A stretch of 39,770 nt of DNA from the NCBI GenBank assembly GCA_002786495.1, contig PCSZ01000076.1, positions 28,047 to 67,816 of the forward strand, written 5' to 3'. Positions within the stretch are counted from its first letter, which is position 1, and each line of letters starts with the position of its first letter. Below are positions 1,256-8,544 of this stretch, piece after piece. Origin of the DNA: Candidatus Uhrbacteria bacterium CG22_combo_CG10-13_8_21_14_all_47_17 (lineage in GTDB: Bacteria > Patescibacteriota > Patescibacteriia > 2-12-FULL-60-25). The notes below the pieces were generated by a model, which was not told the DNA's origin, did no database searches, and was given only the letters and a program-made list of their open reading frames with translations. Both the position numbers and the translations under genes were made by a program.

Positions 1256-1927
1256 TTAAGTTTTAACTGTATAGCGACACTTCGGATAGTTAGAGCAACC
1301 TAAGAATTTACCAAATTTGCCAGACCGCTCCACTAAATTACCTCCGCATTTAGGACATTTTGAAGGTGCCGCATTACTAACAGATCGCCGCTTCTTAGTA
1401 TCCTTTTCAGCCATTCGTATATAACGAACTAATTCAAATCCATCAATTAATTCGATAGGCTTATCTTCAGCAAATTTTTCTGCCTCCAACGTGAATTTAT
1501 TCGTCGTTATAAAATAGCCCTTTCCATTTGCCACACGATCAGCGAGAGCACCATAAAAATCTCGGACAGCACCAACGGGCACCTTTGAAGTAATAAACTT
1601 TTTACACTGAATGTAATTCTTTTTCCCATCCTTTTCTGCAATGACATCAATACCGCCATCATGGGACCTGCCGACTGCCATAGCAGTATATCCTAGCCGT
1701 GAAAACAAAGTAGCTACATAGCTTTCAAACTCTGCTGGTTTCATACCGCGCAACCACTGTAAAAGATCTCTGTCAGATCGCCATTCTTCTCCCGCAGCAA
1801 AACGCCTACGCTTACGCCAAATTTCGAATGAAATGGACAAGGCACCCCCGAGAATAGCGACTCCCAAAATAGACCCAAATAGAAGAAGGACAGTAGGCCC
1901 CGCTATTTTTACAATATCAAGTTCCAT
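1256..1927 (-). CDS. Mrr-like restriction endonuclease with N-terminal TM segment and C-terminal topoisomerase-type C4 zinc finger
   Basis: FESYVATLFSRLGY...HDGGIDVIAEKDGKKNYIQCKK (PD-(D/E)xK, Mrr_cat type); CPKCGGNLVERSGKFGKFLGCSNYPKC zinc finger; hydrophobic N-terminus. Confidence 0.85.
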   Translation of the reverse strand: MELDIVKIAGPTVLLLFGSILGVAILGGALSISFEIWRKRRRFAAGEEWRSDRDLLQWLRGMKPAEFESYVATLFSRLGYTAMAVGRSHDGGIDVIAEKDGKKNYIQCKKFITSKVPVGAVRDFYGALADRVANGKGYFITTNKFTLEAEKFAEDKPIELIDGFELVRYIRMAEKDTKKRRSVSNAAPSKCPKCGGNLVERSGKFGKFLGCSNYPKCRYTVKT

Positions 1928-2082
1928 AATAATACAAGGCTATTAAAAACTTAGAGATGCAGTCAGTTTAGAAAAAAAATGATGAATACTCTACAGATCA
2001 CAAAACCAGCTGCTTTAGAACGGATAGTTTTTTATAGCTATATGTAAGAGGAAACAATCGCAGAGTATGCGCGTCGTTACAT

Positions 2083-2499
2083 CTATTTAAAATACGTAAT
2101 GACATAGAACAACAGTCCGGACAGAACCACTAAAAGCCAAAGTACGATGAAGGTGCCGGTAAGTGCTCGATGCGCGCGAAAATAATTAATGCCTTTTCGA
2201 TAGTGCCTCCAAGCAACAATCATAAAAACAAAAAGCCCCACGAACATAACCAGAGACAAAATCCCATGGAAAGCCGCCAAGCCTATTTCAAATGCCGTGT
2301 CATCCGCTATGGATCCATGCGTTGCCGAGCGGAAAACCATGTAGCTGATATTGAACAGCGTTTCATAAAGCAATGTAATCCCAACAAGAAGGCTGGGAAA
2401 TCGATTTCGCGCGTAACCGGAATAAAACGCGTAGAGAACAGCCAAAGTAACAAGAATCTCCGTGAAGAGCGTAAACGTACTGAAAAGAGGTGCATTCAT
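2083..2499 (-). CDS. hypothetical membrane protein (about 4 TM segments)
   Basis: hydrophobic 138 aa ORF; antisense ORFs are not protein-like. Confidence 0.5.
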   Translation of the reverse strand: MNAPLFSTFTLFTEILVTLAVLYAFYSGYARNRFPSLLVGITLLYETLFNISYMVFRSATHGSIADDTAFEIGLAAFHGILSLVMFVGLFVFMIVAWRHYRKGINYFRAHRALTGTFIVLWLLVVLSGLLFYVITYFK

Positions 2500-2601
2500 A
2501 GGAACTTTCTAGTTTTAAAACAGAAGATACAAGCTTAGCACAAAGAGAAAGATGGCGCTCAAAATGAAATAAAAACACGTCTTATCAGCTCGAAGACAGA
2601 A

Positions 2602-4264
2602 CTACATTTTGGTATCTAGATGTTTGAGCGCGTAATCCAATGATGCGTGGACTTTCTTTCCCGGATTGAAGATATTTTCAGGATCAAAAATATTTTTTGT
2701 TTGCTCAAACAGCGCGTAAATCTTTTCACCGTACATTTTTTTCCAAAAAGGGACTACGGATCAGTCCGTCATTATGCTCGCCGGTGATAGATCCGTGATA
2801 AGACAGAACGAGATCATAGACTTTCTCGGAAAGATCTTTAATGATTTTTTTTCGTACCCGGTTTGGACAAGTCCATGAGTGGAATGATGTGAAAATTTCC
2901 ATCGCCAACATGGCCCGCCACCGTAAATAATAAATGTGTTGAATCAAGAATCTTGTACAACTTTGGCAAAAACGATGGGAGATGTTCCGGCCGAACGACA
3001 AAATCATCGATAAACGGTGCTGTTCGCATGCCGTGCATGTGATGCCTGAGCAAACTAAAACTTTCGCGCCTGATGACCCAGTATTTTTCGCCTTCCTTTT
3101 GCGATTTCATGACTTTCGTTTTGACATGAAACGCCTTTAAACTCTTCTCTGCTTCTTTGGCCGCTTGTTCCGCTTCCTCCGGCGTATCACCGGTAAACTG
3201 CGCGAGAAGAACGAGTTTCGGAACTCCACCGGTTAAAATCATCCAAAACTCCGGAAGAAATTCAAAGGCTATTTTTATCAATCCCATTTTCAATCGTTTG
3301 GCGATATCAGGCAAAAAGCGAAGCGCGACCTTAAAAGTATGGTCATCATAAGACTCAAAACTTTCAGGATGAAATTTCAAAACATGATTGGCAACCTTTG
3401 CCACATCCGGAATCTTACGCAACATGATAACCAGCAAGCGTGAGTGCGGTTTTGGCTTAACCAATCCGAGCGTTGCTTCCGTAATCACGCCAAGCGTTCC
3501 CTACGAACCAACAATAAGCTTCGTCAAATCAAAGACACCTGTTTTCCGATCATACACATTCCAAAGATAATACCCGGCGGAATTTTTAGAAACATCTGGC
3601 TTTGCCGCCATTATTTCTTCATAATGTCCGTCAATCAAATCACATCTTTCGATAAATATCCCCTTCGGCATCCTGCTGCGCCATTTTCAGCTTCAATTCG
3701 GCTGGAGGAAGCGGCGCGAATGTACATTCACTTCCATCATGAATAACCATTTTAATCTGCCGAACATAGCGTTCCGTTTTTCCATAGACCAAGGTTTTTT
3801 CCCCCGCCCGAGTTGTTCGCAACCATACCGCCAACCGTACAAATCTCGCGCGAGGCCGGATAGCACGGTAACAAAAGTCCATGTGCAAGCGTATCTTTTT
3901 CAAAATACCGATAGTAAACACCGGGTTCGCTCACAGCAAAATCCTTTCCCACCTTTTTCAAATGATGAAAGTACTTAATCATGGATAAAACGACGGATGC
4001 CGTCAACGGACCTCCGGACATATCGGTTCACGCGCTGCGCGCCGTTATGGAGATATCCAAACCGTCTTTTTTCTGTTGCGTAACAAAGTTAACGAGCGCG
4101 CGAATATCCTTCACGTCTTTCGGAAAAAGAACCATTTCCGGACAGACCTGAAAGAAACTCGCGTCACGGCTATAGGTTGTGAGCGTCGCTTTATCATCGG
4201 CGATATCCCCTTTGAAAAAAGCCTTAATTTTCCCTTCCAATGCCTTGTAAACGGATGATGTCAT
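2602..4264 (-). pseudogene. FAD-linked oxidase / GlcD-like dehydrogenase, multiply interrupted
   Basis: Fragments in several frames assemble into one protein: MTSSVYKALEG...SITARSA-*-TDMSGGPL...VANNSGGGK / TLVYGKTERYV...DIYRK / CDLIDGHYEE...LIVGS-*-GTLGVITEATLG...MDLSKPGTKK / IIKDLSEKVYDLVLSYHGSITGEHNDG...FLEK / MYGEKIYALFEQTKNIFDPENIFNPGKKV. Two in-frame stops (4028-4030, 3501-3503) and four frameshifts. Confidence 0.88.
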
Positions 4265-4337
4265 GGCACTATGATAGATGGTACGCCTACAGAGTTCAAA
4301 TACGATTGGGAGCGTTTGAATCAACGAGACTCATGCT

Positions 4338-4811
4338 CTAATTTAGAGCCCAGAGTGCATAGTTTAAGTACATCGCGAAGCTCACCCAAGCGATATATGG
4401 AACGAGAAGCCAAGCGGCTGTTTTGGATATTTTATAAAAGAAAATGATTGCAGCAAGAATGGCGAGCCAAAGAACAATAATCTCTATGAGCGCACCACCA
4501 ATATTGTGCTGAGAGAAAAAGATTATGGACCACAAAGTATTGAGTATAAGCTGCGCAAAGAAAAACCGATAAGCCATGTTCTTTTTTATCGTTGTCTGGT
4601 TCTTCCAGATCAAGAACAAAGCAACGCCCATCATAGCGAACAGAGTCGTCCAAACGGGTGCGAATACCCATGCCGGAGGATTAAGAGCCGGCTTTACTAG
4701 CGTCGAATACCAACCGGCGATGGATGGCGCTGTAAACAGCGAACCGATAATGCCCGCAAGTTCGGATACAACGATGGCGATGATGAGTTTAAACGTATTA
4801 TTTATTTTCAT
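4338..4811 (-). CDS. tspO: TspO/MBR family tryptophan-rich sensory protein
   Basis: WYSTLVKPALNPPAWVFAPVWTTLFAMMGVALFLIW and LNTLWSIIFF motifs; start at MKINNTF. Confidence 0.88.
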   Translation of the reverse strand: MKINNTFKLIIAIVVSELAGIIGSLFTAPSIAGWYSTLVKPALNPPAWVFAPVWTTLFAMMGVALFLIWKNQTTIKKNMAYRFFFAQLILNTLWSIIFFSQHNIGGALIEIIVLWLAILAAIIFFYKISKTAAWLLVPYIAWVSFAMYLNYALWALN

Positions 4812-4871
4812 AATTGAATTACTCGCTAGTTTACTTTTCTTTACGTGAAACAACAAACCATAAAAAATTCG

Positions 4872-4913
4872 CTACTCAACCGTTACCGACTTGGCAAGAT
4901 TTCTTGGTTTGTC
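4872..4913 (-). pseudogene. glmS: orphan 3' terminal fragment of glmS (13 codons plus stop)
   Basis: Reverse-complement reading gives D-K-P-R-N-L-A-K-S-V-T-V-E-stop, identical to the canonical GlmS C-terminus; upstream sequence is the 3' end of a histidine kinase rather than glmS. Confidence 0.82.
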
Positions 4914-4924
4914 AATATAGAAGA

Positions 4925-6358
4925 TTATTTTATAGGAAGCTCAACACGAAAGGCGCTCCCCTTTCCCTTCTTACTCTCAACAGTAAGTTTTCCCCCATGT
5001 TTTTCGACAATGCTTTTCGCGATTGCAAGTCCAAGCCCCGTGCCTACTTCGCCCTTAACTTCAAACCTTGCAAAAGGCTGAAATAGTTTTTTCATATCGG
5101 TCGCCGCGATGCCCTTACCACTATCCTTTACTTCGATGCGCACAAGCTTTTTTTCCTTGTTATAGTCTGTACTAACATCGACTTTTCCTTTTTCGGTATA
5201 TTTTATCGCATTTGATATCAAGTTTCTCACTACCTCTTGCATTCGTTGCTGATCGCAGTTTACCTTGGGGAGTTGTGTAATGAATTTAACTTTCAATTCA
5301 AGATCTTTTGCTGCCGCTTCTGATGCGAATTCTTTCACGACCCCGCTTACTAACTTCTTAATATCAGTCGGCGTTTTATCGATTGTGAATTCATCTGAAG
5401 TAAACAGAGACAAATCAAGCAACTCGCTGACCATGTGTACAAGCCTCTCGGTGGAAACAGCCATCATTTCAAGCAGTTCTTTATCTTGTTTTGATTTTCG
5501 GCCTCCGCTCAGCAATTCAATATCATATTTAAGGCTTGTAAGCGGTGAGCGAAGCTCATGAACCATCATCGCAATAAAACGCTTTCTCTCTTCCATTCGA
5601 CGCCTTACTTCCCTTTCCAGATCTTCATTTCGAATTTCCAATGCTTCCTGTATCTGTCGTGCCTCGCGGGAATAAATAGTCACGCCGATCATACCAAATA
5701 AGAGGGATAGTAAAAGAGTAAAGACACTTGAGGTAATGAGGCGATCTCTAAGTAGAGCATTTTGTAACAAGAAACGCGACGCCGGAAAATCCACACCGAC
5801 TATGCCTATTACTGTCCCTTTTTCATCATATATTGGCGCATAGCCCGAAATCCAACTCCCCCAAAAATCCGATGTGATTTTTTTATCCGCCGTGGGCCCG
5901 TTTACGCTCTTCGGAAGTTCCTGACAACAAGAAACATCATACGTCTCTCCAATAGCCGCGCTTGCTTCGCTTGGATCTATGACCCCGTTCCCATTTGTAT
6001 CTTCCTCCTGGCTGGCATCAACAACAAATTCCCATGTCCCATCCGCCCGCGGTCGCACCGTGTAGACATACGTAAGATCAGGTGTAGATTCCGCTATAAG
6101 ATTCAGGTCATTAAAGATGCGCTTATAGATCTCAGAATTTTTTTGCGCCGGATCTTTTAAGGTTTCCATTCCAGAAAAATCAACACGACCTGCAATAGTT
6201 TTGGCTGAAGTACTTACTTCATCTCGAACTTCAGTAAAAATATGGTCTGAAAATCGTATATAAAATGTATATGCAAAAACAAATGTAACAATGATTACAA
6301 GAAAGACATATGTGAGAACAAATTTGAGGACAATGTGCAGTCTCCACGTTTTGGCCAT
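4925..6358 (-). CDS. membrane-bound sensor histidine kinase
   Basis: two TM segments flanking an extracytoplasmic domain; HELRSPL H-box, N-box NLISNAIKYTEKG, G-boxes DSGKGI and GTGLGLAIAK. Confidence 0.93.
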   Translation of the reverse strand: MAKTWRLHIVLKFVLTYVFLVIIVTFVFAYTFYIRFSDHIFTEVRDEVSTSAKTIAGRVDFSGMETLKDPAQKNSEIYKRIFNDLNLIAESTPDLTYVYTVRPRADGTWEFVVDASQEEDTNGNGVIDPSEASAAIGETYDVSCCQELPKSVNGPTADKKITSDFWGSWISGYAPIYDEKGTVIGIVGVDFPASRFLLQNALLRDRLITSSVFTLLLSLLFGMIGVTIYSREARQIQEALEIRNEDLEREVRRRMEERKRFIAMMVHELRSPLTSLKYDIELLSGGRKSKQDKELLEMMAVSTERLVHMVSELLDLSLFTSDEFTIDKTPTDIKKLVSGVVKEFASEAAAKDLELKVKFITQLPKVNCDQQRMQEVVRNLISNAIKYTEKGKVDVSTDYNKEKKLVRIEVKDSGKGIAATDMKKLFQPFARFEVKGEVGTGLGLAIAKSIVEKHGGKLTVESKKGKGSAFRVELPIK

Positions 6359-6477
6359 AAGTATTACAGGATAGACTGTAGCATGTTTTTGGATTTATTT
6401 TAAATATTTTTACTGGACAGCCTCTTACTCCTTTTGCTGAAAGCAGAATATTTTTTTATCAGTATGGCGCTCAAAAC

Positions 6478-6511: not shown

Positions 6512-6586
6512 TGGCTCCGGGGGTGGGGCTCGAACCCACGACCAATTGGTTAACAGCCAACTGCTCTACCACTGAGCTACCCCGGA
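6512..6586 (-). tRNA. tRNA-Asn (GTT), CCA encoded
   Basis: 7-bp acceptor TCCGGGG/CCCCGGA, anticodon loop CTGTTAA, T-loop GGTTCGAGCC, 3' GCCA. Confidence 0.95.
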
Positions 6587-6690: not shown

Positions 6691-8544
6691 CTATGCTTTT
6701 AACCGATCTACCAGCGCACGCACTTCTGCGTGAATACTGGGATAGCCGCGCTCAAGACGCGCTTGTTCAATAAGGATTAGCTCTCCAATCAAGTCGATTG
6801 TTAGGCGTGTATGAACAGGGCTCGGTTGATTATCGATTTCCGTTTGACTCACAAGACCAAGTTCTATCATTTCTTCGATTTCCTCTTCCTCATCTTCTTT
6901 TGCCCGCTTCGGCAAAGCAAAGGAAACCAAGAATCCCAACATGGTAAAGCCGGCGCCAAAAGCCATAGCAGCGCGGTTTGCTTCAACCGTGGACTCGGCT
7001 GCAATATGCGCGATTTCTTCTCGTATCACGACGGGAATTTCATTACCCTGTTGTTTTTCATTTCCAAATTCAACTTCAGAAACATTGTCGGAAAATTGCT
7101 GTGTAAGCACTGGCTTCATCGCTTCCGGAAGAATTTGGCTATTTGTCACGCCGGTAGCGAGACTTGTGGAAAGCACGGAGATCAAAATACTTCCGATAAT
7201 CGCTGAACCAAAAGACGCACCGACTTGGCGCATCGTGCTATTAATACCAGAAGCCTCACCGGCATCTTTGCTAGAGACGGCCGAGAGCGTCATATTGCTG
7301 ATTTGCGACATAACGAGTCCCATACCAATACCGAAGAGCGCGAGGCCAGGAGCGAGCTGCCAAGGACCGCTATCAACCGTAAGCATTTGACGAAGAACGA
7401 GATACGCCGAAGCAGTTACAAGAAGTCCAAGCTGAACAAGGTGTTTTGGTTCGACTTTGCGTCCGAGCATGGCGCTGAGCGGAGAAACAACCAAAAGCAA
7501 AAGCGACATCGGCAAAAGACTCAAGCCGGTATGAAAGGCATCAAGATGGCGAACCGACTGCAAGAATACCGGCACGGAGAAAATAAGACCGGTTTGTCCG
7601 AGCGCCATAACGGACATGGTGAGAATACCGGAAGTGAAGGCGCGGTTTTGAAAGATCTTGAGCGAAATCAGCGGCGTTCTTCCCCTGCCCTCATGATAGA
7701 GTTCCCAACCGATAAACAGCGTCAGAATGAGAAGCCCGAGAACCATCGAAAAAGGAACGACGGAAAGATTCCAAGGCATAGGAAGCGAGAACGTACCAAT
7801 TTCAAAAATCTTTTTCGCCGTCCACCAGCCATAACTTGAAGCTTCAATGACGCTAAAAACAAGCGTAAGCAATCCAAAGGAGGAAAGCAAAACACCAAGC
7901 CAGTCCAAATCCGGACGTTCTTCTGATCGCTTGGATGCGGGAATAATCAATGATCCTATTAGCAAAGCGGAAATGACAATTAAGTTCAGACGAAATCCCC
8001 AACGCCAATCAAATGTCGTTGTAAGATATCCGCCAATAATCGGACCGAGTGCTGCGGCCGCGCCGGCAATGCCTCCCCACACACCAAAGGCAATGGCGCG
8101 ATCGCGGCCGACATAATTTTCAATAAGAAGCGAAGACGTTGCAGGCATCATCAAAGCCGCACCAACACCCTCGACCAAAGATTCGCCGATAATCAACATA
8201 CCAACCGAATGACTCATGGATGCCAAAAAGGAACCGACAGCAAATAAGAAAGCTCCCAGCATGAACATTTTCTTTCGTCCAAAAATATCACCGAAGCGTC
8301 CGCCGGTAACCGTAAGTGCCGCCAATGTCAGCGAGTATGCGCTAATCACCCACTGAATATTCTGAACTGAAGTTTGAAGATCGCGTACAATCGCCGCCAA
8401 AGACACATTCAAGATAGTCGTGTCCAAAATAACGATGGCAAGCGCAAGGCTCAAGACAAGAAGCACGCCCCATTTTCGCAAAGCGGAAACAGGTTCTTCT
8501 TCAACGGTTTCTATAAAATTTTCTACTTGCAAGAAGTTCACCAT
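6691..8544 (-). CDS. DHA2-family (EmrB/QacA-like) MFS drug transporter with C-terminal extension
   Basis: 14-TM-like hydrophobic profile; LDTTILNVSLAAI and GGRFGDIFGRKKMFMLG MFS motifs. Confidence 0.92.
   Translation of the reverse strand: MVNFLQVENFIETVEEEPVSALRKWGVLLVLSLALAIVILDTTILNVSLAAIVRDLQTSVQNIQWVISAYSLTLAALTVTGGRFGDIFGRKKMFMLGAFLFAVGSFLASMSHSVGMLIIGESLVEGVGAALMMPATSSLLIENYVGRDRAIAFGVWGGIAGAAAALGPIIGGYLTTTFDWRWGFRLNLIVISALLIGSLIIPASKRSEERPDLDWLGVLLSSFGLLTLVFSVIEASSYGWWTAKKIFEIGTFSLPMPWNLSVVPFSMVLGLLILTLFIGWELYHEGRGRTPLISLKIFQNRAFTSGILTMSVMALGQTGLIFSVPVFLQSVRHLDAFHTGLSLLPMSLLLLVVSPLSAMLGRKVEPKHLVQLGLLVTASAYLVLRQMLTVDSGPWQLAPGLALFGIGMGLVMSQISNMTLSAVSSKDAGEASGINSTMRQVGASFGSAIIGSILISVLSTSLATGVTNSQILPEAMKPVLTQQFSDNVSEVEFGNEKQQGNEIPVVIREEIAHIAAESTVEANRAAMAFGAGFTMLGFLVSFALPKRAKEDEEEEIEEMIELGLVSQTEIDNQPSPVHTRLTIDLIGELILIEQARLERGYPSIHAEVRALVDRLKA

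What the first reader, a model, noticed from the sequence alone, without database searches (positions are those of the whole stretch)
4872..4919. Orphan glmS 3'-end fragment, a possible att-site scar
On the minus strand, directly after the histidine kinase, the DNA encodes (F-Y-I)-D-K-P-R-N-L-A-K-S-V-T-V-E-stop. The last 13 residues match the canonical, highly conserved end of GlmS. No other glmS sequence is present here. The glmS 3' end is the recognition site of TnsD for Tn7 insertion, and 3'-end duplication is also the usual footprint of site-specific integration. The fragment may mark the edge of an integrated or rearranged segment; adjacent DNA (tspO, decayed oxidase, Mrr-like nuclease) looks accessory.
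Basis: partly seen in the sequence, partly recalled or inferred. Interest (0 to 1): 0.75.

Follow-up and report, generated by a model that had tools for sequence, protein, structure and literature searches.

The report
Leftover 3' end of a lost glmS
A small bacterium of the Patescibacteria group, with no glmS gene in its available genome (a common gene for making a cell-wall sugar), still carries the gene's last 14 codons intact beside a sensor kinase, most likely the stump of a recently lost gene and not shown to be an integration scar.

Summary
Minus strand 4919-4872 reads Y-I-D-K-P-R-N-L-A-K-S-V-T-V-E-stop. It is the only match to the tail pattern in the 0.89 Mb genome (chance expectation about 1e-11). 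No glmS is found elsewhere in this MAG, which is 95% complete, while the same search finds glmS in all 14 control genomes.

Same-family genomes explain it best. G001 has no glmS, yet keeps an equally perfect tail exactly between uvrC and mraZ. Relatives G004 and G017 hold intact glmS at that place, so G001's tail is a deletion stump. G013 has a 43-codon decayed stump. Recurrent glmS loss leaving a 3' stump therefore occurs in this family.

The window's stump is elsewhere: rpoD, tRNA-Asn, histidine kinase, tail, tspO. G013 and G092 have rpoD, tRNA-Asn, tspO without kinase or tail, so kinase plus tail is an extra segment at a variable site. That partly supports the 'edge of an accessory segment' idea. 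The att-site or Tn7 reading lacks a second tail, flanking repeats, a nearby recombinase or an intact glmS.

Two distant relatives (G289, G347) carry extra tails directly downstream of intact glmS; these are unexplained. Verdict: a real but modest gene relic.

The parts
4872..4919 (-). orphan glmS 3' end (YIDKPRNLAKSVTVE*), at least 14 codons (from I) plus stop; untranslated relic as far as can be seen
   Evidence: unique in the genome
4925..6358 (-). complete membrane histidine kinase; its stop is about 5-11 nt upstream of the relic; nearest relatives found only about 40% identical
4338..4808 (-). tspO (TspO/MBR), start codon 63 nt downstream of the relic stop
6512..6586 (-). tRNA-Asn(GTT), the conserved neighbour of rpoD; the downstream interval is variable among relatives
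2838..4324 (-). FAD-linked oxidase broken into at least two or three frames (pseudogene)

Best explanation
The 48 bp are the stump of a lost glmS. A full glmS (glutamine--fructose-6-phosphate aminotransferase) once lay on the minus strand between the kinase and tspO in the variable interval downstream of rpoD and tRNA-Asn. A recent deletion removed everything from just after the kinase stop codon to the last 14 or so codons, and the tail has not had time to decay. Shown: the tail's identity, the absence of any other glmS in the MAG, and an analogous in-place stump in G001. Inferred: that an intact glmS once stood at this exact place, and the deletion itself. No function is needed; glucosamine-6-phosphate or a derivative would have to be salvaged, as in the many class members without glmS.
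For: No glmS in G000 while 14 of 14 controls ring. Loss is common: 177 of 381 class genomes have a glmS over the family cut-off and 199 have any match at E <= 1e-20. G001 (same family, no glmS) keeps GIDPDKPRNLAKSVTVE* between uvrC and mraZ, where G017 has uvrC-glmS-mraZ and G004 has glmS-mraZ. G013 (no glmS) keeps a decayed 43-codon stump. The position of glmS is not fixed in the family: G004/G017, G009, G025, G030 and G035 differ, so a copy beside tspO is plausible. The region is decaying (broken oxidase). The tail's nearest nucleotide relative among the loci held is the same-family glmS of G009 (6 differences in 39 coding nt, all synonymous).
Against: No genome examined has glmS beside tspO or this kinase. 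G013 and G092 have tRNA-Asn followed by tspO with no glmS between, so glmS would first have to have been inserted there. The deletion end falls almost exactly after the kinase stop codon, which is tidy.
Confidence: 0.6

Rival explanations
1. Integration scar: an element that uses the glmS 3' end as its attachment site brought in the kinase-tail segment, and the tail is its attR; the matching intact glmS (attL) was lost or lies in the missing part of the assembly.
For: Kinase plus tail is an extra segment relative to rpoD-tRNA-Asn-tspO in G013 and G092. The interval is a hot spot in relatives: a serine recombinase in G028, DNA methylases in G035. Stand-alone glmS tails directly downstream of intact glmS exist in G289 (two extra) and G347 (one extra). 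The MAG is about 95% complete.
Against: No recombinase beside it, no flanking repeats of 13 bp or more, no second tail in the genome, no intact glmS. The closest parallel (G001) is an in-place stump. Of 80 viral loci with the tail, all but two continue upstream as GlmS; L114 is cut by the end of the locus and L123 keeps about 30 GlmS codons.
Confidence: 0.2
2. Horizontal capture of a fragment: a segment from a donor with glmS-tspO (or a piece of glmS alone) was joined next to the kinase by illegitimate recombination, so a full glmS never stood here.
For: The nearest tspO relatives (about 70%) are in other families with varied neighbours, so tspO may have moved.
Against: No glmS-tspO neighbourhood seen among 29 tspO loci. 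rpoD-tRNA-Asn-tspO is shared with G013 and G092, which argues tspO is native here.
Confidence: 0.13
3. Assembly artefact (chimeric contig).
For: Draft metagenome assembly in 81 contigs.
Against: The site is far from the ends of a 67.8 kb contig; GC changes smoothly across it; independent genomes show the same kind of stump.
Confidence: 0.05

Closest known systems
Gene-loss relic (truncated pseudogene) of glmS
   Same: Only the 3' end is left, no intact copy in the genome, same-family genomes show the same kind of relic at a place where relatives hold intact glmS (G001)
   Different: At this particular place no relative with the intact gene was found
attTn7 (TnsD recognition site in the last 36 bp of glmS; PMC2918618)
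   Same: The retained codons contain the whole region homologous to the TnsD site
   Different: No Tn7-like element, no TniQ hit in the genomes searched (controls silent), and Tn7 inserts downstream of the site without duplicating it
Site-specific integration scars at gene 3' ends (attL/attR)
   Same: A gene 3' end standing alone at the side of an accessory-looking segment
   Different: No second copy, no flanking repeat, no integrase seen beside it

Membership tests
glmS deletion relic | unmistakable homology to a part of glmS, not the whole | tested here: met
glmS deletion relic | no functional copy in the genome | tested here: met
   (MAG 95% complete, so not absolute)
glmS deletion relic | relatives hold the intact gene at the same place | tested here: inconclusive
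   met for G001; no relative of G000 with glmS at the tRNA-Asn/tspO place
integration (att) scar | second copy of the core sequence bounding the segment | tested here: not met
integration (att) scar | integrase or transposase gene in the segment | tested here: not met
   the tyrosine integrase noted is on another contig
integration (att) scar | empty site in relatives | tested here: met
   G013 and G092: rpoD-tRNA-Asn-tspO without kinase or tail; distant, so ambiguous
Tn7 attTn7 site | TnsD/TniQ and TnsABC in the genome or relatives | tested here: inconclusive
   no TniQ in 58 genomes but no control genome rang; TnsABC not searched

The most novel reading that the evidence does not exclude
In Patescibacteria the last 13-15 codons of glmS behave as a movable or retained unit: an attachment core for an undescribed small element. 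Tails beginning at about the same codon would then be left singly in genomes without glmS (G000, G001) and in tandem behind glmS (G289 two extra, separated by about 61-bp spacers with a hairpin; G347 one extra that differs from the resident tail at 9 of 39 nt, 8 of them third positions, so not a fresh duplicate).
Probability: 0.08. Interest if true: 0.6.

Novelty: already known. Interest (0 to 1): 0.25.

Why it matters
As a gene stump it documents repeated loss of GlmS in one family of Patescibacteria whose members still carry peptidoglycan genes (the window itself holds MraY, MurD, MurG and FtsW-like ORFs), which bears on dependence on outside amino-sugars. The tandem tails in G289 and G347 are the part that could lead to something new, a glmS-targeting element in this group.

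Tried and rejected
Tn7 origin: TniQ search negative but uninformative because the controls were silent. Viral origin: 80 IMG/VR loci with the tail pattern are intact glmS, apart from L114 (cut by the locus end) and L123 (about 30 GlmS codons). tRNA-Asn integration: no downstream copy of the tRNA 3' end. Kinase as carrier of the tail: no close relatives in 85,000 genomes or among relatives. glmS next to tspO or rpoD in relatives: none. Phylum-wide tandem-tail search: only false positives, G000 itself (loose upstream word) and G564, in 380 genomes. RNA element: no Rfam hit apart from tRNAs, and the tail region folds no better than shuffles. A third-codon-position test on the G000 tail was discarded as evidence because a perfect peptide match makes every difference synonymous by construction.

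Full report
OBSERVATION. The minus strand at 4919-4872 encodes YIDKPRNLAKSVTVE-stop. The degenerate DNA pattern for DKPRNLAKSVTVE* occurs once in the host genome; chance expectation is about 1.5e-11. The frame is not that of the upstream histidine kinase (4925-6358, complete, HATPase_c to residue 476 of 477), whose stop codon lies some 5-11 nt before the tail. The tspO start codon is 63 nt downstream of the tail's stop.

HOST. The window is part of a 67.8 kb contig of a 0.89 Mb MAG (95% complete, 81 contigs). I take it to be a Patescibacterium from its genome size, gene content and relatives; no name is given. TIGR01135 finds no glmS in it, only weak GATase and SIS-domain paralogues, while all 14 control genomes score over the cut-off.

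RELATIVES WITHOUT glmS. Absence is common: of 381 class genomes, 177 have a glmS over the cut-off and 199 have any match at E <= 1e-20. The PRNLAKSVTVE* pattern (up to one mismatch) is in 159. Comparing the two lists by hand, only G000 and G001 carry the tail with no glmS behind it (G385 keeps a glmS end truncated by a contig edge). G001 is in the same family. Its tail, GIDPDKPRNLAKSVTVE*, stands between uvrC and mraZ and is followed by a terminator-like hairpin. Relatives G017 (uvrC-glmS-mraZ) and G004 (glmS-mraZ) have the intact gene there, with the same GIDPDKPRN ending. So G001's tail is a stump left in place by deletion. G013, also in the family and without glmS, has a 43-codon stump that has begun to decay, ending DRPRHLAKTITVR*.

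WHERE THE WINDOW'S TAIL LIES. G000 keeps uvrC and mraZ together on contig C63 with neither glmS nor tail between them, so its tail is not at that place. The order in the window, reading down the minus strand, is dnaG, rpoD, marR, MFS transporter, tRNA-Asn, kinase, tail, tspO, broken FAD-linked oxidase. rpoD followed by tRNA-Asn is common in the family, and what follows varies: DNA methylases in G035, a serine recombinase in G028. In G013 (same family) and G092 (another family) tspO lies downstream of the rpoD-linked tRNA-Asn, with no kinase and no tail; in G013 it follows directly, in G092 after a methyltransferase-like ORF.

WHAT IT MOST LIKELY IS. The simplest account joining these facts is that glmS stood between kinase and tspO in an ancestor (its position differs among at least five contexts within the family) and was recently deleted down to the last 14 or so codons. 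The tail is unmutated at the peptide level; its nearest counterpart among the loci held is the glmS end of G009 (6 differences in 39 coding nt, all synonymous). Because a perfect peptide match makes all differences synonymous by construction, this says only that loss was recent. The weak point is that no genome with glmS at this exact place was found.

THE INTEGRATION READING. The retained codons contain the region homologous to the TnsD site, the last 36 bp of E. coli glmS (PMC2918618). But Tn7 inserts downstream of that site and does not copy it. There is no second tail, no repeat of 13 bp or more bracketing the segment, no copy of the tRNA-Asn 3' end downstream, and no recombinase seen beside the segment. 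TniQ was not found in 58 genomes, but no control genome rang either, so that test is not informative. Of 80 viral loci with the tail pattern, all but two continue upstream as GlmS; L114 is cut by the end of the locus and L123 keeps only about 30 GlmS codons before stops interrupt the frame. I leave the integration reading at 0.2.

SIDE FINDING. Two distant class members have extra tails directly behind an intact glmS. In G289 two extra tails are separated by 61-bp spacers that carry a hairpin (arms GAACC / GGTTC). In G347 one extra tail lies 29 bp downstream behind another hairpin, and differs from the resident tail at 9 of 39 nt, 8 of them third codon positions. The spacers were not found elsewhere in the parts of these genomes that were read. 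These may be scars of elements using the glmS end, or tandem duplications; the G347 divergence speaks against a fresh duplication there, although the search pattern itself favours synonymous differences. This is the only part with novelty potential.

VERDICT. A real, precisely placed relic; ordinary gene loss is the best explanation (0.6), an att scar is possible (0.2), interest is modest.

Noticed in passing
L094 (G289:C88) 6199-6441, minus strand: Two extra glmS tails in tandem behind an intact glmS, about 104 bp apart, each preceded by a nearly identical 61-bp spacer with a hairpin.
   Followed up: partly
L095 (G347:C6) 7102-7208, minus strand: One extra glmS tail 29 bp behind an intact glmS after a GC-rich hairpin; it differs from the resident tail at 9 of 39 nt, 8 of them third positions.
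   Followed up: partly
L095 (G347:C6) 1717-2892, minus strand: A GlmS-like protein with the SIS (isomerase) half only, no glutaminase domain, ending EIDKPRNLSKYVN, about 4 kb from the full glmS.
   Followed up: no
L216 (G000:C63) 7442-8272, minus strand: A tyrosine recombinase (Phage_integrase plus SAM-like domain) gene directly upstream of uvrC in the window's own genome.
   Followed up: no
L216 (G000:C63) 3405-5720, minus strand: Three consecutive ORFs with similar starts, probably paralogues, fill the uvrC-mraZ interval where some relatives hold glmS.
   Followed up: no
window 2838-4324: FAD-linked oxidase (FAD_binding_4 plus FAD-oxidase_C) broken into at least two or three frames, a pseudogene beside the glmS stump.
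   Followed up: partly
L258 (G028:C25) 1387-6338, minus strand: Large serine recombinase and a primase-like ORF downstream of the rpoD/tRNA-Asn pair, a probable provirus at the same hot spot.
   Followed up: no
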